Assembly: GCA_902782875.1 (NCBI GenBank)
Contig: CACZPE010000360.1
Span: 1 to 10,104 of the forward strand
Direction: 5' to 3'
Source of the DNA: an uncultured Ruminococcus sp.
Lineage (GTDB): Bacteria; Bacillota_A; Clostridia; Oscillospirales; Ruminococcaceae
DNA length: 10,104 nucleotides
Position numbers and translations under genes: made by a program. Every line of letters starts with the position of its first letter. Position 1 is the first letter of the stretch. This document shows, in pieces, positions 231 through 10,104 of this stretch. The notes beneath the pieces were generated by a model. That model had not been told where the DNA came from, ran no database searches, and saw nothing but the letters and a program-made list of their open reading frames with translations.

Positions 231-302
231 GAAAATCACTATCCACAACTTAAGAGCTTTGAAAATAATTTATGATCCCTTAAGTTGTGGATAGTGAATT
301 TC
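231..302. repeat. Long inverted repeat (24-bp arms) between two leftward genes
   Basis: The arms 231-254 and 279-302 are inverted complements with one mismatch (an uninterrupted 18-bp core, 237-254 with 279-296). They are separated by a 24-nt AT-rich spacer. The structure sits in the gap between the stop of the U32-like gene (317) and the start of the next gene (216). Neither side has a strong T-run, so it is a poor intrinsic terminator. It looks more like a palindromic intergenic repeat or a MITE remnant. Each arm contains CTATCCACA, one base from the DnaA box TTATCCACA. Confidence 0.8.
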
Positions 303-316
303 TGATTGCTGATCGA

Positions 317-1228
317 TCAGAAGTATTTCTTCTCTTTTGTAAGCCTCAGCAGCATTTCGAGGCGTACCTCGTCCCTGTATTCGGGGCGGATCATGTAGTA
401 CATATAGTTTTCGAGCACGTTGATATCGGGTACGCTCCTGCCCTCTATCTTGAAGTTGCGGTAGCCCATATCCGCGTATACCCCGTATACCGCGTCGGGG
501 GAGATATGCAGCGGTGAATCTGTGGTCTGGTAGAGATTCTTGAGCATACACTCACATTCAAACGGCTCCGGCTCGCACATGCTGTGGTTCTTTATCAGAT
601 ACTCAGCGCACTTTATCTGGCTTCTGCCTATGGAGCGGTAATGCTCCCCCCTGCGTTTGCAGTGAGGCGTGCAGCAGGGATTTATCAGCAGCTCCGCCTT
701 TTCCTTGTGGGGAAGTCTGCGAAGCAGCTCGAAGTTGTTGTTGAAATTATAATCGAGCACAACGAGGGAGTAATCCTTCTCCAGCTCCTTTTCAAGCTCC
801 TTTTCGTCCTCTATCTGCTTGCAGGTGGAGGATGTGAGCTTCATGCCCGGGAAGTTCTTTCTGATATGCTCCTCGAGCAGGGGAGAGAACACGATGGCTT
901 CGTTGAGGCCGTTGTCCGCGGCTTTGAGTATGGAGTTGCAGAGAGGGTCCGACAGATGCTCCTTCTTCAGCACGGGATTGGTGAGGGTGAAGCGGCAGGG
1001 GATGCCTCTGCGGTTGAACTGTCCGAGTATCTCCTTTATCACTCTCGGGTCGCACTGACCCTGGAGAAATCTGCCTCCGTTCCATATCATATTCGGGAAT
1101 ATCCCGTATACCGAGCCTATCCCCGCCCCCTCCATAACGGTCTCGGGGGCGCTTGTGACATGGTCTGCCATCATTATATTTATCTTGAAGTGTCTTGCAA
1201 AATCGGGCAGGTGAAAACGATATTCCAT
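317..1228 (-). CDS. U32-peptidase-like TIM-barrel protein
   Basis: This 303-residue protein has no signal peptide or membrane segment and is presumably cytosolic. The C-terminal FKIEGRS (residues 259-265) followed by a Tyr/Arg-rich helix matches the conserved KIEGR block of the peptidase U32 family. The alternating beta/alpha pattern (TSSTCKQ around 132-138, LVVLDYNFNN around 155-164) fits a TIM barrel. Known relatives include collagenase-like proteases and tRNA/rRNA hydroxylation proteins, but the usual U32 Cys signature is not obvious. There are 11 cysteines, notably C185, C186 and C190 (CCTPHC) and C218, C225 and C227, which could bind a metal or an Fe-S cluster (inference). The ATG lies 10 nt past the stop codon of the EAL gene, and the AGGCGG there overlaps that stop, so translation is probably coupled. 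The substrate is unknown. Confidence 0.6.
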   Translation of the reverse strand: MEYRFHLPDFARHFKINIMMADHVTSAPETVMEGAGIGSVYGIFPNMIWNGGRFLQGQCDPRVIKEILGQFNRRGIPCRFTLTNPVLKKEHLSDPLCNSILKAADNGLNEAIVFSPLLEEHIRKNFPGMKLTSSTCKQIEDEKELEKELEKDYSLVVLDYNFNNNFELLRRLPHKEKAELLINPCCTPHCKRRGEHYRSIGRSQIKCAEYLIKNHSMCEPEPFECECMLKNLYQTTDSPLHISPDAVYGVYADMGYRNFKIEGRSVPDINVLENYMYYMIRPEYRDEVRLEMLLRLTKEKKYF

Positions 1229-1238
1229 AGCTATCCGC

Positions 1239-3764
1239 CTATTCAGTCTTTATGGCATCTATCGTGTCAATTATGGAGACATTGCCGTTTGTCACGATAC
1301 CGGTGCTGTTTGGAGAGAGGAGCAGCAGATCGAGTCTGCAGCTGGTGATGTCGACATCTCCGCTGCCCTCGGAATCGCCGATGCCTGTTATGCTGTTGCC
1401 GCCACACTCGATCTTGACATCGGTGTGTGACAGCTTTATGCCGAGCTTACCGCTGTCGGTGCCCACGCATCTGATGGTCCTGCCGTGGAAATCGCCGAAA
1501 ACGCTGCCGTAGTTGATATGTATCTGGCCCGAGCCGTTCTTCATAACGCCTATGCCGCAGAGATTGGAGCCCGACAGGTCGACAAAGCATCTGAAGTTGC
1601 GCAGCTCTATATCCGCGCGGCCCTCGTATGCGCCGACGCCTATGGAGTTGGAGGCATTGACATTCACCGCAAGCACGCATTCTCCGAGCTCTGCGATGCA
1701 GTTGCCCCATACGGAGCCTACTCCGACTGCCACGGTGCCTTCACAGGTGATGCGCACATCGCCGCTTACAAATCTTATCTTGCTGCCCGAATCATTCCTG
1801 CCGCCGCCTATGCCGACAGAGGTGTCGCCGTAGGAGGATATGATAAGCCTTCCCGAACAGGCTATGGTGATATTTCCGTAGCCCGAATCCCTGTCAGAGC
1901 CTATGCCGTAGGAGGATGTGCTCGACGCCTGTATCTCCAGTGTGCCTGCTCCCGTAATGCGGAGGGATGCACCGGAGGGAACGTTTATGCCCCTCTTGAG
2001 CAGACGGTTCGTGCCGACTATCTCTATCTCGGCGTCGCTGTTGTCGCCGAGGGTGATATTTGCGGATTCCTTGTCGTTTGATATCACGGCATCGCAGAGT
2101 ATGATCCTTGTCTTTATGCCGTCCTTGATTATTATGGGGATATTCACCGAGTTCTCGGTGCCGCCCTGCACGGTGACATTCTCTGTATCTATGAATACAG
2201 CGGAGTAATGCCTTGCCGCAAGATCAAAGAGGTTTATGGTCTCGTGATCGGCGGGGTGGTAGTATCTTGATACGCTGCTGAGCTCGGTATTTATCCTGAT
2301 GATCTCGTTTACCACGTTCTCGGATATGCTGCTCTGCAGGTACTGTCTCGGGCGGGCGGTGTAGAAGCCCTGCATCAGATCGACGCCGAGCTTTATCATG
2401 ACCTTCATCTCGTCATAGGTCTCCACGCCCTCTGCAAGAGCCTTGAAGCCGTTGGAGTGGATGAATTCTATTATACTTGATACCAGCTGCTGTATCTTCG
2501 GCTTCTTGTTGATGCCGTTTATCAGCGCACGGTCTATCTTTACGTAATCGGGGTTGTAGCGCAGCAGATTTGATGTATTGGAATATCCCGTGCCGTAGTC
2601 GTCTATCGCAAGCTCGATGCCGCTCTTGTTCAGGCGGTCCTTTATGTTCATCAGCTTTTCACTTACGACCTCGGTCTGCTCGGTGAGCTCTATTACGATA
2701 TGCTCCATCACATCGCCGTAGGTGTTCACAAGATCGTTCCAGTCCTCGTCGGAGAGGATATACGCAGATATGGAGTTTACAAACATCTTCTTGTCTGCAA
2801 ATTCCTCCATATGGTTTGCTACGTCGCGCAGCGCGTTGCTCATGGTGCAGCGCTCAACGTCATAGAGCCTGTTGCACTTGGCTGCAGTCTCTATTACCTC
2901 CTCGGGGGAGAGATTTATGGAGTTCTCCGTGCGCATCAGCGTCTCATAGGCATAGATGCTGCCGTTATGGGAGCTTACTATCGGCTGGAAGTTGTATACA
3001 AATAGGTTGTCGTCAACGAGCTGGGTAAATCTTCTTGCCTTGTCGTATTCGATATGGCGCTTTTCGTAAAGCTCCTTTGAGTATCTGAGTATGGAGCCCT
3101 TGCCCAGGGCGTTTGCCTGATAGAGCATGAATTCAGCGGTGTTCATCTTCTGCAGGGGGTCTGCGGTCTGGTCGGCGCAGCCTGCGGTAAAGGTGATGTC
3201 ATCCACGGATTCAAGAGCGTTTTTCTGCAGCTCTTCCAGATAGTCGCCGCAGTCTGTGTCTATATCGGGTATAAAGAGCCAGTATCTTCTCTTGCCGCAT
3301 CTGGATATGAGTGCGGCGGGCTCGCTCTCGGTTATCGCACTGAGAAGGCTCACTACCGAGAAGGGTGACGGCAGCCCATCAAAGGACTGCACCTCCATCA
3401 TGGCAAGCAGGGAATTGCCGCGGGCATTGACCAGCGCTGTCATAAGGCTGCCTCTGCTGCAGAGCCTTGCATCCGAGGAGGATACCCTGTTGAGCTTTAT
3501 TATACCTGCGGATATACCGTCCTCACATGAGAACTGTCTTACCGACAGGGGAGATACATTCTCTTTCTGTTCAGCTATCGACCTTACTATGGAAAGCATA
3601 TTCTCATAGGTAGGTTCTTCCGAGATGCCGAGCAGCTTCATGGCATTCTGGTCGAGCATGACTCTGTATTCTTTTGAGTCGGCGAGGTAGCCGCCTATTT
3701 CGGGCGACAGTGAGAGCAGCGTGTCCCATGCTTCGCCAAATATCTTATGCCAGGTCTGTTTCAT
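1239..3764 (-). CDS. EAL-domain c-di-GMP phosphodiesterase with C-terminal beta-helix domain
   Basis: The protein has 841 residues. Residues about 25-95 look PAS-like. Residues about 135-232 look like a degenerate GGDEF domain: the end YQANALGKGSILRYSKE is recognisable, but the GGDEF motif is lost. Residues about 245-485 are an EAL domain, which cleaves cyclic di-GMP to pGpG. Its key residues are all present: E274 (YETLMR), N330, E359, D388-D389 (IDDYGTGYSN), K409, E445 (AEGVE) and Q465 (QGFYTARP), so activity is expected. Residues about 518-840 form a Gly-rich beta-helix-type region. G-I/V-G-like turns recur near 620, 651, 681, 709, 737, 767, 794 and 822, about every 27-31 residues, like surface carbohydrate-binding beta-helices. 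No signal peptide or membrane helix is seen. The start is supported by GGAG 8 nt upstream and a consensus promoter at 3852-3824. Confidence 0.9.
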   Translation of the reverse strand: MKQTWHKIFGEAWDTLLSLSPEIGGYLADSKEYRVMLDQNAMKLLGISEEPTYENMLSIVRSIAEQKENVSPLSVRQFSCEDGISAGIIKLNRVSSSDARLCSRGSLMTALVNARGNSLLAMMEVQSFDGLPSPFSVVSLLSAITESEPAALISRCGKRRYWLFIPDIDTDCGDYLEELQKNALESVDDITFTAGCADQTADPLQKMNTAEFMLYQANALGKGSILRYSKELYEKRHIEYDKARRFTQLVDDNLFVYNFQPIVSSHNGSIYAYETLMRTENSINLSPEEVIETAAKCNRLYDVERCTMSNALRDVANHMEEFADKKMFVNSISAYILSDEDWNDLVNTYGDVMEHIVIELTEQTEVVSEKLMNIKDRLNKSGIELAIDDYGTGYSNTSNLLRYNPDYVKIDRALINGINKKPKIQQLVSSIIEFIHSNGFKALAEGVETYDEMKVMIKLGVDLMQGFYTARPRQYLQSSISENVVNEIIRINTELSSVSRYYHPADHETINLFDLAARHYSAVFIDTENVTVQGGTENSVNIPIIIKDGIKTRIILCDAVISNDKESANITLGDNSDAEIEIVGTNRLLKRGINVPSGASLRITGAGTLEIQASSTSSYGIGSDRDSGYGNITIACSGRLIISSYGDTSVGIGGGRNDSGSKIRFVSGDVRITCEGTVAVGVGSVWGNCIAELGECVLAVNVNASNSIGVGAYEGRADIELRNFRCFVDLSGSNLCGIGVMKNGSGQIHINYGSVFGDFHGRTIRCVGTDSGKLGIKLSHTDVKIECGGNSITGIGDSEGSGDVDITSCRLDLLLLSPNSTGIVTNGNVSIIDTIDAIKTE

Positions 3765-3823: not shown

Positions 3824-3852
3824 ATTATACATTATTATTCAATTATTGTCAA
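3824..3852 (-). promoter_or_regulatory. Consensus sigma-A promoter for the EAL gene
   Basis: On the minus strand, TTGACA (3852-3847) is followed by exactly 17 bp and then TATAAT (3829-3824), a perfect match to the sigma-70/sigma-A consensus. Transcription would start near 3817, giving a leader of about 50 nt with GGAG just before the ATG at 3764. No clear operator is seen. Confidence 0.88.
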
Positions 3853-3919: not shown

Positions 3920-3920
3920 G

Positions 3921-3965
3921 AAACCCTTCCACCAATGCCCCGATGGGGCATTGGTGGAAGGGTTT
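3921..3965. repeat. Perfect 45-bp palindrome (21-bp stem, 3-nt loop)
   Basis: The arms 3921-3941 and 3945-3965 are exact inverted complements around the loop gat. The outer part (aaacccttccacca) is shared with the repeat at 9950-9963 (aacccttccacca). It is therefore a variant of the tail of the composite repeat family in which the three-hairpin tail is replaced by one long hairpin. It lies downstream of the leftward nucleotidyltransferase gene but has no adjacent T-run, so a terminator role is weakly supported. Confidence 0.85.
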
Positions 3966-4013
3966 CCCCGCTAATTAATCTGAAAAAGCCATCCCCGCCC
4001 GATGTGCGCAGGC
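3966..4013 (-). repeat. Right half of a composite repeat, orphaned hairpin arm plus T-run
   Basis: Read on the minus strand, this segment runs gcgcacatcgggcggggat, then ggcttttt, then taattagcgg and into aaaccc. It matches the right half of the intact repeat at 9907-9953, which has gcacacatcggatggggat, gatttttt and taattagcgg in the same order. The left hairpin arm is not adjacent here. Its partner is found at 5565-5581 in the same orientation. CAGGC at 4009-4013 is one copy of the putative target duplication. Confidence 0.75.
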
Positions 4014-4049
4014 CAGTTCCGCTATAGCTGCAGAATCGGCAGGGCCTGC

Positions 4050-5168
4050 CTACAGCAGATCATCGGCTCCGTTCAGTGCTTTGCTTTCAAAGCTTCCAGT
4101 CTCTTTATAAGCCGCTATGAACGCATCGATATCAGGGTACACTTCTGCTTTCAGGCCGATCTTCCTGTATTCCTGATGATATGCTTCCAGAATGCGGTCA
4201 AATCCTTCAGCTGTCTTTTTCAGATCATCGGGATTGAAGACTGCGAGCACATCATACGAATCGATATCGCCATCGCTTCTGATGTCCGACATCATCTCGT
4301 TCAGGCTGCTAAGACTCATGAACGCCAGATGGCGATCTCCGGTCTCTGCTGCGACCTGCATTTTGCCATGCCAGTTCGAGAACATTTCTTCATAGCTGCC
4401 GGACAGTGATCCTGCATCAGCCTTATTTTTCTCCTGTTTAAAAGTATGCTTTTCCTTTTCAAAGCAAACCGTCAGCTCTTTCACCAACAACGACAGCCGC
4501 TCTTTCAGTGCAGGGACTGTTCCTGCTGACAGTATATCTTCTATCATTCCGCAAAGCCTTTCAGGACGTTTTGTCATGGCGTACAGTTCATCATAACGGC
4601 GTCTGACGCCTTTTTTGAAATAGCATTTGTTCAGCATGGCAACTGCGTTTTCCGCAAAATACAGTACACCGCCGGCCTGCTTGCGTATCTCTGTCAGATC
4701 ATCTCCGATCATGGCCAGGGCATAGCAGTGAAGAGCATCCTTCAGGATGTTTTCCGCTTTCTGGAAATCTGCTTCACAGAAAGGTTCCGCCAGCTTCTGC
4801 AGTACCTGCTCACGCAGCGTTTCCAGTTCGCTCCGGTACTTTTCATCCGTGCAGTAAACGATCTGTGCATCCATAAGCTTGGCTATATTTGGGTGCTCAT
4901 AAGCGGCATCCCGCCGCAGGCTCTCCCAATCGGTACAGTAGATATCATGTCCTACGCCGATGTCCTCCTGTATAAACGCTTTCCCGAGCTGCCATCCGCG
5001 ATCGTCGTTGATGAGGATCAACAGATCCAGATCGGACAGCGGATGTATATCGCCAGTCTGAAATGAGCCATAGATCCCGATCAGCGCAATCGCACCGGGA
5101 CACAGTGCCTTTTCTTTTTCCAACACAGCGTCAATGATTTTCTGGTTTCTGATTTCGTTATTATCCAT
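4050..5168 (-). CDS. Nucleotidyltransferase-fold protein, aminoglycoside adenylyltransferase-like
   Basis: The 372-residue soluble protein carries the polymerase-beta nucleotidyltransferase signature near its N-terminus: G34-S35 (YGSFQTGD), then D46 and D48 (SDLDLL), with D75 (GHDIYC) a candidate third metal-binding Asp. Such enzymes transfer AMP or another nucleotide from NTP to a small molecule (ANT-type drug resistance) or to a protein or RNA. The helical C-terminal part (about 130-370) presumably binds the substrate, which is unknown. The start is supported by GAGGAG at 5177-5172, 3 nt before the ATG. Its codons favour ATC/ATT, GAA and AAA, whereas the neighbours favour ATA, GAG and AAG (judged by eye), which suggests transfer. 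It lies inside a segment that appears to interrupt a repeat. No clear promoter was found in the AT-rich upstream DNA. Resistance is possible but unproven. Confidence 0.75.
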   Translation of the reverse strand: MDNNEIRNQKIIDAVLEKEKALCPGAIALIGIYGSFQTGDIHPLSDLDLLILINDDRGWQLGKAFIQEDIGVGHDIYCTDWESLRRDAAYEHPNIAKLMDAQIVYCTDEKYRSELETLREQVLQKLAEPFCEADFQKAENILKDALHCYALAMIGDDLTEIRKQAGGVLYFAENAVAMLNKCYFKKGVRRRYDELYAMTKRPERLCGMIEDILSAGTVPALKERLSLLVKELTVCFEKEKHTFKQEKNKADAGSLSGSYEEMFSNWHGKMQVAAETGDRHLAFMSLSSLNEMMSDIRSDGDIDSYDVLAVFNPDDLKKTAEGFDRILEAYHQEYRKIGLKAEVYPDIDAFIAAYKETGSFESKALNGADDLL

Positions 5169-5561
5169 ATTCTCCTCACAATTTTACGCGATGATGCGGC
5201 CATATTTCTATATTTACTGTGTTTCATATGACCGCAGTTCATTTCAATGATGATAATGCAAACAGAAGTTTACTGTTTAAATGATAGGATGGATCATTCC
5301 TAGGCTCTCGACAGTATATTTTACACGTATTACAATAATAATGAATACATATAATAAAATCATAGCACATTTTAACAAGGCATTCAAGGGATTATAAATA
5401 ATTCACATTTCACTACGGTCATATATGACTCTTAAGACTATATAGAGAGAAAAACAAATGAATAATTGAACACCCTATACAGATCATTAATCAACAGATT
5501 TGTATAGGGTGTATTGCTATATCACGGCTTTTGTGGAATGTTCCGTTTCGGTGGTCCTGCT
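5169..5561. other. AT-rich gene-free stretch within the insert
   Basis: These 393 nt lie upstream of the nucleotidyltransferase gene and contain no supportable coding region. The longest start-to-stop reading seen by eye (5341-5397, 18 codons) has no ribosome binding site. AT-rich tracts near 5310-5360 could hold the leftward promoter, but no -35/-10 pair with correct spacing stands out. The only strong structure is the hairpin at 5470-5512. Confidence 0.6.
5470..5512. repeat. 16-bp stem hairpin near the right end of the insert
   Basis: The arms 5470-5485 (acaccctatacagatc) and 5497-5512 (gatttgtatagggtgt) pair over 16 bp with one G-T wobble, around an 11-nt AT-rich loop. No T-run follows immediately on either strand, so it is not a standard intrinsic terminator. 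It lies about 50 nt inside the right boundary of the proposed insert and could be part of an end recognised by a mobilising enzyme (inference). Confidence 0.75.
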
Positions 5562-5566
5562 CAGGC

Positions 5567-5614
5567 ACACCGGACGGGGATAATTGCTCATTGCTATTTT
5601 CTAATTGATTAATT
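5567..5614 (-). repeat. Left half of the composite repeat, heptads plus hairpin arm
   Basis: On the minus strand this reads caattag (5607-5601), aaaatag, caatgag, caatta, then tccccgtccggtgtg. The intact copy at 9868-9903 has caatgag, caattag, caattaa, then the same 15-base arm. The two differ mainly by one heptad. The right hairpin arm is missing here and is found at 3991-4007 in the same orientation. The far end of the segment runs into the -35 box of the mrp-type gene. Confidence 0.75.
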
Positions 5615-5641
5615 GACATTCCCGTAATAATGTGCTATTAT
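5613..5641 (+). promoter_or_regulatory. Sigma-A promoter for the Mrp-type ATPase gene
   Basis: TTGACA (5613-5618), a 17-bp spacer and TATTAT (5636-5641, one mismatch to TATAAT) form a near-consensus promoter. Transcription would start near 5648, about 30 nt before the start codon. The -35 box touches the outer edge of the repeat half at 5567-5614. Confidence 0.82.
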
Positions 5642-5677
5642 AGATAATGCAGATCCAACGAAAGGAAAGTGAATTTC

Positions 5678-6502
5678 ATGAGTGAATGTACAGCAGAGAG
5701 CTGTTCCTCATGCAGCCTCAACTGTTCTCAGAGAAAAGGACCGCAGAGCTTCATAGAAAAGCTCGGCGAGGGCAGCAGTGTAAAGAAAGTCATTGGCGTA
5801 GTAAGCGGAAAGGGCGGCGTAGGTAAATCCCTGGTAACGGGACTGCTCGCAACCGCTTTCTCGAAGAAATACAGCACAGCGATACTTGACGCTGATATCA
5901 CAGGTCCGTCGATACCCAAGATGTTCGGCATAAGCGAACGCGCTACAGGTACCGACAAGGGGCTTATCCCCGTAAAGAGCAAGGGCGGCATAGGTATGAT
6001 GAGCCTTAACCTCCTGCTTGAGAACCCGACTGACCCCGTTGTATGGAGAGGCCCTGTTATAGCAGGCGTTGTAAAGCAGTTCTGGGGCGAGGTAGTATGG
6101 GGCGATGTGGACTATATGTTCGTTGATATGCCTCCGGGAACGGGCGATGTGCCGCTTACGGTGTTCCAGTCGATACCCGTTGACGGCATAATCATCGTGG
6201 CATCCCCCCAGGAGCTGGTATCGATGATAGTGGGCAAGGCTGTCAATATGGCCCGCCTTATGAATATACCCATACTCGGCATAGTCGAGAATATGAGCTA
6301 TATCGAATGTCCCGACTGCGGAAAGAAGATATACCTCTACGGCGAGAGCCATGTAAGCGCGGCTGCGGAGGAATACGGCCTGAAGGTGCTCGGCAGCATA
6401 CCTGTATCGCCTGATATAGCATCACGCTGCGACAAGGGCGAGGCAGAGAGCATAGAGGGCAGCTGGCTCGATGAGGCTGTGTCCGCGATAGAAGCTCTCT
6501 GA
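5678..6502 (+). CDS. mrp: Mrp/NBP35 (ApbC) family P-loop ATPase, Fe-S cluster carrier
   Basis: The family binds iron-sulfur clusters and passes them to apoproteins in the cytosol. The 274-residue protein has an N-terminal Cys cluster (C4, C9, C12, C16), a deviant Walker A motif GKGGVGKS (residues 44-51, with signature K45 and catalytic K50), DADITGPS (from residue 71), switch II DMPPGTGD (150-157) and the family CxxC (C211-P-D-C214), which can bridge a cluster at the dimer interface. The length is normal for the short clostridial form without a DUF59 domain. ATG 5678 is chosen over an in-frame GTG at 5669 because AAGGA (5662-5666) is only 2 nt from the GTG but 11 nt from the ATG, and the resulting start MSECTAESCSSC fits relatives. 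It is driven by the promoter at 5613-5641. Confidence 0.95.
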   Translation: MSECTAESCSSCSLNCSQRKGPQSFIEKLGEGSSVKKVIGVVSGKGGVGKSLVTGLLATAFSKKYSTAILDADITGPSIPKMFGISERATGTDKGLIPVKSKGGIGMMSLNLLLENPTDPVVWRGPVIAGVVKQFWGEVVWGDVDYMFVDMPPGTGDVPLTVFQSIPVDGIIIVASPQELVSMIVGKAVNMARLMNIPILGIVENMSYIECPDCGKKIYLYGESHVSAAAEEYGLKVLGSIPVSPDIASRCDKGEAESIEGSWLDEAVSAIEAL

Positions 6503-6540
6503 TACACAAAAAAATAAACGAAAGGGGGGACTGATACTGG

Positions 6541-6563
6541 TCATCCGCAGGGTGTGCGGATGA
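6541..6563 (+). promoter_or_regulatory. Leader hairpin before the GH44-like gene
   Basis: In the 74-nt gap between the mrp stop and the next ATG, tcatccgca (6541-6549) and tgcggatga (6555-6563) form a perfect 9-bp stem with a 5-nt loop. A strong purine run AAAGGGGGG (6521-6529) lies just upstream of the hairpin, but there is no good Shine-Dalgarno sequence between the hairpin and the ATG at 6577. No T-run follows, so it is not a terminator. It may tune translation or stabilise mRNA (inference). Confidence 0.55.
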
Positions 6564-6576
6564 TGATCGGTACGAT

Positions 6577-8547
6577 ATGAGAAAGAAGCCGTTTTTTACA
6601 GCTGCTGCGGCTGCGGCAGTGCTTATGTCGTCTTTCAGTACTGCGGGATATGCCGATAATGATATCTCCGACGAGATAGACCATGCGGTATTCACCGTAT
6701 CCACAAACAGCAGCAGGGCGGTCAGCAGATATATCTACGGTATAAACGACAACAGCGATCTCTCAGGGTTCAGTCCCACCGTTATAAAGCAGTGCAGCAC
6801 AGCGGTGAGCTCCTATAACTGGGAGACCAACGCTGCCAATTCGGGTATATCGGGCGGAAGCACCAACGATGTATCCCTTGTGGGCGGATATCCCTCCACC
6901 TACTGGCGCACCCCTGCACTCTATACCGAACAGCTCGTATCCAAGGCGTCAAGATACAATATCTCCATGCGTCTTGTGACACTGCAGATGATGGGCTCGG
7001 CTGCGGGCGATTCTCTCGGTGTGGTAGACGAAGAAGATACTGCAGCGCGCTGGAAGAAGGTAAGATACTCCAAGAGCGATGCCTACTCCACCAGACCCGA
7101 TGTGCAGGACGACAGCATATACATGGACGAGTATGTGAGCTTTCTTGTCAATATGTACGGCACCTCGGACAAGGGCGGCATAAACGGATATATGCTCGAC
7201 ACCTGCCCCGATAAATGGGCGGAGGAATTCCCGTATGCGCCCACCTCAAAGGTGACTCCTTCTGAGTATACCGACCGCTCGGCACAGCTTGCACAGGCGG
7301 TCAGGACGATAGACGGCAATGCGATGATATTCGGGCCATCACTGTCCGGCCTTGACGGGTGCATAAACTTCGGCGATGAGGATGAATGGATATCGGGCGG
7401 CTATGCGGCCGACAATATGTGGTTCGTCGATTACTATCTCGATGAGATGAGAAAGAAAAGCGACGCCGCAGGCCAGAGACTGCTCGACTGTTTTGATATA
7501 CACTATTACACCGCGGCGCGTTCGCCTCTCGGGGAAGACGTGCTCACATCAAATGACGATACCTCCGACAAGTACCGCATGCAGGCGGTCAGGACACTGT
7601 GGGACCAGGACTACACCGAGAACAGTGTTACAGGCCTTGTGAACAAGCGCTTCACGCCTGTACTCCCGACCTTGCAGGCATCGCTCAGGGTGAATTACCC
7701 CGACACGTTGCTGTCGGTATCCGAATACGATTTCGGCGGCGGCGGACGCATGAGCGGCGCCATAGCCGAGGCGGAGGCCCTGGGCACATTCGCATCCGAG
7801 GGCGTGTTCCTTGCGTGCCTGGCACCGTCGGGCGACTACCGCTTCCAGAAAGCGGCCATAAGGCTCTATACCGACTATGACGGCGAGGGCTCCTCCTTCG
7901 GAAACGGCATACTCACCACTACGGGCGAGGACAGGACAAGCGCGGTATATGCAGGTATCAGCAACGACGATATCTCGTCCGTAAGGCTGGTAGTCACCAA
8001 TCAGAACCTTCTTATGGACAAGCTTATTGATATAGATATTGACAGCGGCTATGACTACCGTGTCGAGAGCGCGTATATGATAGACAGCGATACGGCGGAT
8101 ATAGTTGAGGCGGATATATCGGATTTTTCGCAGACAGACAGCGGCATATCCTTTACGGCAGGCCCTCTTTCGGCATATATGATCGTGCTCAGCGGTGAGA
8201 TGCCCGAGGAATCGCTGCCCGATGAGACCGCCATCAGTCATGTGGACAGGCCCGATGTGAAGGAGACAAGGCCCTCACAGACAGTGCGCGACGACACGGA
8301 CAGCACCGTCAGCGAGACCGCTCCGCCCGAGGAGGAGAGCGGCACGGAGAGTGTATCCTCCGATGAGACTAACGCATATGAAACACGTATATTTACAGAG
8401 CCTGCGGAGGTCACCGAAACAGAAGTGACGGAGCCCGCACCGCAGCAGAAAACTCCCGCGCCCCTGCCCGTGAAGATACTGGGCTCGCTGCTGACAGGCA
8501 TCGCCCTGCTGGGAGTATTCTATATCATCGTATTTGACAGGAAATAA
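6577..8547 (+). CDS. Secreted, membrane-anchored GH44-like protein with acid/base residue replaced
   Basis: The 656-residue protein has a signal peptide (RKK, then an Ala-rich core, cleavage near A26), a GH44-type catalytic region (about 40-440), a beta-sandwich (about 455-545), a Ser/Thr/Glu/Pro-rich linker (about 548-628) and a C-terminal membrane helix (about 634-653) ending in DRK. GH44 enzymes cleave beta-1,4-glucan and xyloglucan. Family blocks are clear: SYNWETN, DEYVSFL, MLDTCPDKW, IFGPSLSG, DYYLDEM, RLLDCFDIHYYTA, RTLWDQDYTE and SEYDFGGG. The nucleophile Glu is E383. The acid/base Glu of the family LDNEP motif is C210 here, in LDTCP. Normal hydrolysis is therefore doubtful, and glycan binding or a changed chemistry is possible. 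There is no dockerin or LPxTG signal. ATG 6577 is the first in-frame start after a stop at 6532, though its ribosome binding site is poor. Confidence 0.85.
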   Translation: MRKKPFFTAAAAAAVLMSSFSTAGYADNDISDEIDHAVFTVSTNSSRAVSRYIYGINDNSDLSGFSPTVIKQCSTAVSSYNWETNAANSGISGGSTNDVSLVGGYPSTYWRTPALYTEQLVSKASRYNISMRLVTLQMMGSAAGDSLGVVDEEDTAARWKKVRYSKSDAYSTRPDVQDDSIYMDEYVSFLVNMYGTSDKGGINGYMLDTCPDKWAEEFPYAPTSKVTPSEYTDRSAQLAQAVRTIDGNAMIFGPSLSGLDGCINFGDEDEWISGGYAADNMWFVDYYLDEMRKKSDAAGQRLLDCFDIHYYTAARSPLGEDVLTSNDDTSDKYRMQAVRTLWDQDYTENSVTGLVNKRFTPVLPTLQASLRVNYPDTLLSVSEYDFGGGGRMSGAIAEAEALGTFASEGVFLACLAPSGDYRFQKAAIRLYTDYDGEGSSFGNGILTTTGEDRTSAVYAGISNDDISSVRLVVTNQNLLMDKLIDIDIDSGYDYRVESAYMIDSDTADIVEADISDFSQTDSGISFTAGPLSAYMIVLSGEMPEESLPDETAISHVDRPDVKETRPSQTVRDDTDSTVSETAPPEEESGTESVSSDETNAYETRIFTEPAEVTETEVTEPAPQQKTPAPLPVKILGSLLTGIALLGVFYIIVFDRK

Positions 8548-8606
8548 CCGTTAAGAGCATGACGCGTTTATGATAGTACACAAAGGACTTCAAGGAGGAT
8601 TTTTCA

Positions 8607-9860
8607 ATGGCTGATCCAAGATCTACCGTTGCGGTCGCCTGCCCTATATGCGGCGGCGATGTGCAGTTCGATCCCACTCTGGGCAAGCTGGTATGTGAGT
8701 ACTGCGGCTCTGAGATAACCCCCGAGGAAGCTCAGGCACGCTATGACAAGGAGGAGGCCAAGCTCAACGAGAGGGAGCAGGCGCATCCGTCCTCCTCATC
8801 ATCCGATGACGGATGGGGAGAGGACAGCGACGACATGAAGGCTTTCAGCTGTTCGTCCTGCGGTGCCGAAATGATCGCAGAGGAGAATACCGCTGCGATG
8901 ATATGCCCCTTCTGCGGCAACAGCACTATAGTTCCCGCACAGTTTGAGGGCGCTATACGCCCCGACTGCCTTGTGCCCTTTGCGTTCACAAAGGATCAGG
9001 CGGTGTCAAAGTACAAGGGGTACTACTCGGGCAAGAAGCTGCTCCCGAAATCATTCGATGCGGGTAACCACATCGAGGAGATACAGGGCGTATACGTGCC
9101 CTTCTGGCTCTATGACGGCTCTGCGGAGATAGATGCGCGCTACAGGGCGTATGACAAGAAGGAGCATCAGGACGAGACGGAGATAATCTTCTACAACGTG
9201 CAGAGACAGGGCACGCTGGGCTTCAAGAACGTACCTACCGATGCGTCCGAGAGAATGCCCGATGACCTGATGGATTCCATAGAGCCCTATGATTTCACAA
9301 AGCTTGCGGATTTTAATATATCCTATCTTCCCGGATTTCTTGCCGAGAAATCGAACTCAGAGGAGCAGGCGGAGCTTGAAAGGGCTGAGAAGCGCATAAA
9401 GGGCTCCATATCCTCGCTTTCAAGGAAGTCCGTAAGACATGACGGCATAGACAACGCCCAAGAGGATATAGACGTGGAGTTCGGCAACAGAAGATATGTG
9501 CTGCTGCCGGTATGGTATCTTGTTACAAAGTGGAACGACAGGCAGTGGACCTTTGCGATGAACGGCCAGACGGGCAAATTCATCGGCGATCTGCCCATCG
9601 ACCCCGGCAAGATGGCTGTAAGGCTCATCATAGCGTTTATTGCGGCTCTTGCTGTGGTATACCTGCTTGCCTCCGACATATGGTACGGCATATTCGCAGG
9701 CTTCATAGCTGCGGCGATAGTGGGCTTTTCGAGCTATGCGAGCATGAAGCCCGTAAGCCGCGCAAACGATGCAGCAGGATATGTGGAGGACCTGAAGCTC
9801 TCCCTTGCCACCGAGCAGTATGACCACACGGAACATCGCAAGAAACAGAGAAACAATTGA
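8607..9860 (+). CDS. Double zinc-ribbon membrane protein of unknown function
   Basis: The 417-residue protein has two N-terminal four-cysteine zinc ribbons, C12-x2-C15 with C30-x2-C33 and C82-x2-C85 with C100-x2-C103. They are separated by an acidic, Ser-rich linker. A soluble core (about 115-330) follows, containing GVYVPFWLYDG (161-171), a helical Glu/Lys segment (about 250-275) and LLPVWYL (299-305) with NGQTGKFIGDLP (319-330). Two membrane helices lie at about 337-356 and 359-377, and the tail is charged and cytosolic. This architecture recurs in Firmicutes proteins often annotated as TFIIB-type zinc-ribbon proteins, whose role is not known to me. AAGGAGG (8592-8598), 8 nt before the ATG, is the strongest ribosome binding site in the window. 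The gene starts 59 nt after the GH44-like stop, with no terminator between. Its stop codon overlaps the first heptad of the downstream repeat. Confidence 0.85.
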   Translation: MADPRSTVAVACPICGGDVQFDPTLGKLVCEYCGSEITPEEAQARYDKEEAKLNEREQAHPSSSSSDDGWGEDSDDMKAFSCSSCGAEMIAEENTAAMICPFCGNSTIVPAQFEGAIRPDCLVPFAFTKDQAVSKYKGYYSGKKLLPKSFDAGNHIEEIQGVYVPFWLYDGSAEIDARYRAYDKKEHQDETEIIFYNVQRQGTLGFKNVPTDASERMPDDLMDSIEPYDFTKLADFNISYLPGFLAEKSNSEEQAELERAEKRIKGSISSLSRKSVRHDGIDNAQEDIDVEFGNRRYVLLPVWYLVTKWNDRQWTFAMNGQTGKFIGDLPIDPGKMAVRLIIAFIAALAVVYLLASDIWYGIFAGFIAAAIVGFSSYASMKPVSRANDAAGYVEDLKLSLATEQYDHTEHRKKQRNN

Positions 9861-9888
9861 CAATTAGCAATGAGCAATTAGCAATTAA
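9854..9888 (+). repeat. Heptanucleotide array (five 7-mers) at the 3' end of the zinc-ribbon gene
   Basis: Five 7-mers follow in register: caattga, caattag, caatgag, caattag, caattaa. The first contains the last codons and TGA stop of the zinc-ribbon gene. The array leads straight into the hairpin at 9888-9925 and forms the left end of the composite repeat. Confidence 0.85.
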
Positions 9889-9933
9889 TCCCCGTCCGGT
9901 GTGTTTGCACACATCGGATGGGGATGATTTTTT
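9888..9933 (+). terminator. Intrinsic terminator formed by the repeat hairpin
   Basis: Positions 9888-9904 pair with 9909-9925 to give a 17-bp GC-rich stem (two G-U pairs) with a ttgc loop. Six T residues follow at 9928-9933. It lies 28 nt after the zinc-ribbon stop and would end the rightward transcription unit. The same hairpin is the core of the repeat family in this window. Confidence 0.8.
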
Positions 9934-9947
9934 ATGTAATTAGCGGT

Positions 9948-10028
9948 AGAACCCTTCCACCACCAGCCGTAGGCTGGTGGTCCCCCTCATTGCTACGCAA
10001 TGAGGACTTCCCTTTCAGGGGAGGTTCT
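9948..10028 (+). repeat. Cloverleaf-like palindromic repeat tail (three hairpins inside an outer stem)
   Basis: The outer stem agaacc (9948-9953) pairs with ggttct (10023-10028). Inside are three hairpins, each with a 3-nt loop: 9960-9968 with 9972-9980 (9 bp), 9985-9993 with 9997-10005 (9 bp), and about 10008-10013 with 10017-10022 (6 bp, one G-U). The start aacccttccacca is shared with 3922-3935. No tRNA features such as a T-loop or anticodon arm of correct size are present. Confidence 0.7.
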
Positions 10029-10104
10029 GACGTATTATGTTTGTTTGAACGAAACCATTTTATTCGCAAAGACGTAAGAGTAAAGCAATAAGCACTGTAC
10101 AAAA

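What the first reader, a model, noticed from the sequence alone, without database searches (positions are those of the whole stretch)
3966..5614. A palindromic repeat split in its hairpin loop by a 1.55-kb nucleotidyltransferase cassette
Two incomplete repeat halves lie 1.55 kb apart, in the same orientation and correct order. The left half has heptads and the arm tccccgtccggtgtg; the right half has gcgcacatcgggcggggat, a T-run and the aaacccttcc tail. Joined at the CAGGC duplicated at 4009-4013 and 5562-5566, they form a 17-bp stem with a 4-nt loop (ctgc on the minus strand), as in the intact copy at 9888-9925 (17 bp, loop ttgc). The insert carries one gene, has no transposase and no clear terminal inverted repeats. 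It may be a non-autonomous cassette that targets the loop of this repeat family.
Basis: partly seen in the sequence, partly recalled or inferred. Interest (0 to 1): 0.78.

Follow-up and report, generated by a model that had tools for sequence, protein, structure and literature searches.

The report
Gene fragment lodged in hairpin loop
In a gut or rumen bacterium, a stray piece of DNA carrying one nucleotidyltransferase gene and the broken start of an acetyltransferase domain sits exactly in the loop of a terminator-like hairpin, most likely by an untidy join rather than as a purpose-built mobile cassette.

Summary
Two halves of a palindromic repeat lie 1.55 kb apart, in order; joined, they fold as one hairpin and align with the intact copy (91 of 112 columns). 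Among stems with arms 400-3000 nt apart in 3.18 Mb of fetched DNA, only a simple-repeat hit scores higher.

The cassette reading fails. The insert's gene is the first part of a two-domain gene, nucleotidyltransferase plus AAC(6')-type acetyltransferase. Homology to an uninterrupted relative (78% DNA identity) runs past the stop codon to window 4007, where the repeat's 3' arm ends. So the 'duplicated' CAGGC at 4009-4013 is gene-homologous sequence. There is no transposase, and no Watson-Crick pairing over 10 bp between the flanks. None of 20 other loci of the gene family showed a split terminator (best pair per strand sense).

Best reading: one illegitimate insertion of a horizontally acquired fragment, with up to 7 nt of microhomology at one end. 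No empty site was found. The nearest species held (G018) lacks repeat and insert, and its EAL and mrp lie apart, so two separately broken repeats are not excluded.

The parts
3920..3966 (.). perfect 22-bp inverted repeat (3-nt loop) in the tail of the split repeat
   Evidence: the repeat finder I5, 100% complementary
3967..4007 (-). 3' half of the split repeat: 3' stem arm 3991-4007, T-run 3983-3987 and start of the tail (minus-strand sense)
   Evidence: sequence; alignment to the intact copy; pairing
4007..4049 (-). remnant of an AAC(6')-type acetyltransferase domain past the NTase stop codon, cut off where the repeat arm begins; the last bases are shared with the inferred hairpin loop
   Evidence: frame comparison with P0006/P0007; DNA alignment to G1019; NCBIfam on P0006/P0007
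4050..5168 (-). nucleotidyltransferase gene, 372 aa, PF01909; first domain of a gene that is two-domain in many relatives
5169..5564 (-). AT-rich 5' part of the insert with promoter-like sites and an inverted repeat near 5469-5515; origin unknown
   Evidence: GC 0.328 for 5169-5561; promoter-like matches; no useful match; inverted repeat read from the sequence
5565..5614 (-). 5' half of the split repeat: 5' stem arm 5565-5581 and heptads up to the mrp promoter-like site (minus-strand sense)
9851..9962 (+). intact copy of the repeat: heptads, 17-bp hairpin 9888-9925, T-run, tail

Best explanation
A fragment of about 1.55 kb was inserted once, by illegitimate recombination, in the 4-nt loop of a terminator-like palindromic repeat between the divergent EAL and mrp genes. 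It carries an AT-rich upstream region, a nucleotidyltransferase gene and about 14 codons' worth of sequence past its stop codon that belong to an AAC(6')-type acetyltransferase domain. A template switch at a replication fork stalled by the hairpin, or end joining at a broken hairpin, would give this. Shown: the two hairpin halves, the truncated two-domain gene, the place of the junction at that end. Inferred: a single event, the loop sequence of the target, the microhomology mechanism, horizontal origin. The NTase itself is probably still made, since its stop codon precedes the junction; its substrate is unknown.
For: Joined halves fold and align as one element with no stem base lost. DNA homology to the uninterrupted G1019 gene runs from 5177 to 4007 and ends where the repeat arm lies. 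Relatives carry the acetyltransferase domain behind the NTase. The donor gene and a CCTGC-type loop share GCCTGCG. Patchy presence near the host, more frequent in another Clostridia family. No transposase or long terminal inverted repeat.
Against: No empty site was seen. EAL and mrp are not neighbours in G018, so the site is also a rearrangement seam. If the target loop resembled the intact copy (TTTG), only about 3 nt (TGC) were shared. The 5' junction of the donor fragment is unknown. The direct donor was not identified (best DNA match 85% over 698 bases).
Confidence: 0.55

Rival explanations
1. Two different copies of the repeat were broken separately, or the site is the seam of a chromosomal rearrangement, so that the halves only look like one element.
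For: EAL and mrp are apart in G018; homology to G018 ends at 3835 on the EAL side and resumes at 5613 on the mrp side. The 5' arms of the split and intact copies are identical, so pairing of the halves does not prove that they come from one copy.
Against: Both breaks would have to fall in the same 4-nt loop, with order and orientation kept and no stem base lost.
Confidence: 0.22
2. A transposase- or recombinase-driven non-autonomous cassette targets the loop of this repeat and leaves a GCCTG target duplication.
For: GCCTG occurs at both ends. Insertion in palindromic repeats by IS1397, ISKpn1 and IS621 has precedent (passages of PMC1525189). One more split terminator-like stem with a single GNAT gene lies in G003.
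Against: One end lies inside a coding domain, and the left GCCTG is gene-homologous. No inverted ends over 10 bp. 0 of 20 other loci of the gene family showed the arrangement. The G003 case is within the background by pairing score.
Confidence: 0.1
3. Assembly artefact: reads from different places were joined at a repeat.
For: No whole genome is held for the window, and read coverage could not be checked; the break lies in a repeat.
Against: Chimeras at a repeat usually keep a whole repeat copy (general expectation, not tested); here each side keeps a half with unique sequence inside. A gene product of the same length and C-terminus at 98% identity is on 3 other contigs (P0001).
Confidence: 0.07

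Closest known systems
Insertion sequences that target REP palindromes (IS1397, ISKpn1, IS621)
   Same: Insertion within a palindromic intergenic repeat (passages of PMC1525189; that IS1397 enters the loop is recalled)
   Different: The insert here has no transposase and one end lies inside a gene
Mobile insertion cassettes (MICs)
   Same: A passenger gene without a transposase (definition recalled; listing only)
   Different: No inverted ends; one end inside a coding domain
NTase-AAC(6') two-domain proteins of Clostridia (P0006, P0007)
   Same: NTase part at 73-75% identity
   Different: The window copy stops before the acetyltransferase domain, whose sequence is cut off by the repeat
Illegitimate, microhomology-mediated insertion of foreign DNA
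   Same: Short shared sequence at one junction, no target loss visible
   Different: Placement exactly in a hairpin loop; mechanism not shown; literature seen as listings only

Membership tests
Mobile insertion cassette | passenger gene, no transposase (definition recalled) | tested here: met
   ORFs and Pfam
Mobile insertion cassette | terminal inverted repeats derived from an IS | tested here: not met
   longest Watson-Crick pairing between the flanks 10 bp
Mobile insertion cassette | target-site duplication | tested here: inconclusive
   GCCTG at both ends, but the left copy is gene-homologous
REP-targeting insertion sequence | transposase gene | tested here: not met
REP-targeting insertion sequence | insertion in a palindromic repeat | tested here: met
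Integron gene cassette | attC site behind the gene | not tested
   no attC model was run; the 3' end lies inside a coding domain, which does not fit
Group II intron | ribozyme and reverse transcriptase | tested here: not met
   no group II intron among Rfam matches up to E 1 in the window; the insert's one gene is an NTase
Bacterial interspersed palindromic repeat (REP-like) | many copies per genome | tested here: inconclusive
   two copies in the window; exact hairpin pattern in 0 of 150 and exact tail pattern in 0 of 255 relatives of G018; own genome not held

The most novel reading that the evidence does not exclude
Loops of terminator-like hairpins in these Clostridia are capture points at which horizontally arriving genes or gene fragments (here an NTase, in G003 a GNAT gene) are joined in without loss of the stem, so that split terminators record gene gain.
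Probability: 0.12. Interest if true: 0.65.

Novelty: new member of a known kind. Interest (0 to 1): 0.33.

Why it matters
Palindromic intergenic repeats are known to attract insertions. This case shows that a tidy-looking 'cassette' in such a repeat can be a plain gene fragment whose apparent target duplication is gene sequence. If hairpin loops prove to be preferred joining points, split terminators would be a simple marker of gene capture in gut anaerobes.

Tried and rejected
Empty site: the one genome-contig scan (Mrp) gave 80 loci, best 81% identity. Blastn of the EAL-mrp intergenic stretch against these 80 found nothing at E 1e-3; I read the upstream region of only seven of them. G018 (EAL 84%) has no repeat at either place and no NTase in the 1.65 Mb fetched.

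Cassette ends: the upstream part (5178-5561 or 5178-5570) gave no useful match in fetched loci (best E 0.032), none in plasmids and one 52-nt phage match at E 9e-3. The intergenic stretch by megablast in plasmids: none. NTase protein in plasmids and phages: none; in viral contigs two pattern matches, neither a relative.

Repeat family elsewhere: DNA of the intact copy in G018, G004, G003 and G006 gave short weak matches in 3 of 4 (best E 0.0035, heptads only). Hairpin pattern in viral contigs 0. The tail pattern gave 15 viral stretches and the 5'-arm pattern 12; in the contexts printed I saw no copy of the repeat, and blastn found only short matches, the best to heptads of G004.

General split-terminator idea: four scans. 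One search listed 8 pairs and missed the window pair; no excess of near over control; 26 near and 179 far pairs, many of them repeats; the window pair was missed because a G-U pair broke its seed. (shorter seed): 63 near against 47 and 41 in two control bands at score 32 or more, 15 against 11 and 20 at 36 or more, 3 against 6 and 16 at 38 or more, not normalised for stretch ends or repeats. The G003 case does not stand out by pairing alone. In one search, 3 of the control pairs also reach 19; which loci they join was not printed, and some loci there are close relatives.

Rfam up to E 1: four matches below their gathering scores, taken as chance. Paper search for Ruminococcus palindromic repeats: 0 papers held all four terms.

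Full report
What is there. The window is a Ruminococcus-like contig by its Mrp relatives; no whole genome is held for it. Between the divergent EAL gene (1239-3764, minus) and mrp (5669-6502) lie two halves of a palindromic repeat, 3967-4007 and 5565-5614. An intact copy lies at 9851-9962 in the opposite orientation. Joined, the halves fold into one hairpin with a 4-nt loop and align with the intact copy in 91 of 112 columns. The stem has 17 pairs, 2 of them G-U. On the minus strand it is followed by a T-run, so it is terminator-like. The longest distant stem in this region is 19 (G-U allowed), against at most 17 in 100 shuffles. In 3.18 Mb of non-redundant fetched sequence, at spacing 400-3000, the window pair scores 42, below only one simple-repeat hit; the control bands at larger spacing do hold higher scores, most of them from one locus, L064.

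What the insert is. Its only gene is a 372-aa nucleotidyltransferase (PF01909, E 1.1e-6). Of 946 homologues, 120 were listed: the nearest (P0001) is 98% identical with the same length and C-terminus, the others are at most 78%. Many of those listed are longer and carry an acetyltransferase domain behind the NTase. In P0006 and P0007 that domain passes the NCBIfam cut-off for aminoglycoside 6'-N-acetyltransferase group E (175 and 185 bits against 140). The window's frame past its stop codon still matches the start of this domain. At DNA level, G1019 (L117/L128, uninterrupted 513-aa frame) aligns at 78% (911 of 1175) from window 5177 to 4004, with an identical block to 4007. From there the sequence is that of the repeat's 3' arm. 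So the insert is cut off inside a coding domain, and the CAGGC at 4009-4013 lies in gene-homologous sequence. The ORF ends before the cut, so the NTase product is not changed by it.

Upstream, DNA homology to G1019 begins at 5177, just before the start codon. The rest of the insert is AT-rich (5169-5561: GC 0.33), holds promoter-like sites and matches nothing useful in plasmids, phages or fetched loci. The 5' end of the donor fragment is therefore unknown.

Where the gene comes from. Matches: 2 of 100 relatives of G018 (52%, E up to 1e-60), 1 of 394 of its order (56%, E up to 1e-110), 0 of 391 of its class (same limit, no positive control), 7 of 49 genomes behind other Mrp loci with P0007 as query (E up to 1e-60, one of them to the acetyltransferase part only), 11 of 300 of the family of G867 (66-76%, E up to 1e-150), 1 of 6 of the genus of G1019, namely G1019 itself (E up to 1e-165), and 14 of 308 of the family of G1019 by DNA (E up to 1e-100). 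The limits and queries differ, and the genome sets overlap, so this is not one comparable rate. The best DNA match is 85% over 698 bases, in G932. Composition does not settle the origin: the gene's GC3 (0.54) is below the neighbours' (0.61-0.71), but the relatives' copies range over 0.55-0.69. The direct donor is not identified; the pattern fits horizontal gain from, or sharing with, that Clostridia family.

Is it a cassette? Of 20 other loci of the gene family (three of them only 33-40% identical to P0007), none showed a comparable stem followed by a T-run, looking at the best pair per strand sense; L099 and L100 have a 17-bp pairing without a T-run. There is no Watson-Crick pairing over 10 bp between the flanks and no transposase. 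The cassette reading is not supported; the placement in the loop stands.

Was it one event? In G018 the mrp-GH44-Zn block is conserved (93, 72 and 83% protein identity), but neither side carries the repeat, and EAL lies elsewhere. Homology to G018 ends at 3835 and resumes at 5613. So no empty site was seen, and the EAL-mrp seam is itself absent from the nearest species. One insertion in one repeat is the simplest account, because both breaks fall in the same 4-nt loop with no stem base lost, but two separately broken copies remain possible.

How it may have happened (inferred). If the target loop was CCTGC-like, donor gene and target share GCCTGCG, 7 nt, at that junction; if it was like the intact copy (TTTG), only about TGC. 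Either fits microhomology-mediated joining at a hairpin, by template switch at a stalled fork or by end joining at a broken hairpin. GCCTG at both ends then comes from shared sequence, not from a transposase's staggered cut.

Is it general? In relative G003 a perfect 14-bp stem with a T6 run, just after the stop codon of an M23-like peptidase gene (name recalled from the sequence), is split by about 710 nt with one GNAT-type gene; 3031 of 3045 candidates match that gene in the protein collection. Its placement is suggestive, but its score lies in the background: 15 near pairs at 36 or better against 11 and 20 in the control bands. It is a lead only.

Literature. Passages of PMC1525189 say that IS1397, ISKpn1 and IS621 insert within REP sequences and that strain-specific segments of E. 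coli genomes are associated with REP-containing elements. For mobile insertion cassettes and illegitimate recombination I saw search listings with starts of abstracts only. I make no claim that this is absent from print.

Noticed in passing
L098 6868-7623 (G003:C51): A second terminator-like hairpin (14 Watson-Crick pairs, T6) split by about 710 nt with a single GNAT-type gene, beside a tRNA-Leu. Within the background by pairing score.
   Followed up: partly
window 5613-9860: The block mrp-GH44-Zn-ribbon gene is flanked in the window by two copies of the repeat in opposite orientation, heptads facing the block; in G018 the same block has no repeat on either side. Repeat-linked rearrangement is possible.
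   Followed up: partly
P0001-P0060: The NTase domain is fused to at least three visibly different kinds of C-terminal extension in its relatives (for example P0002, P0006, P0036), besides solo forms, so fusion to acetyltransferases seems to have happened repeatedly.
   Followed up: no
window 231-302: Inverted repeat, 24-nt arms, 96% complementary, 24 nt apart, downstream of the first genes of the window.
   Followed up: no
window 3920-3966 and 9950-10030: Further hairpins behind both repeat copies (a perfect 22-bp one at 3920-3966), so the repeat looks composite.
   Followed up: no
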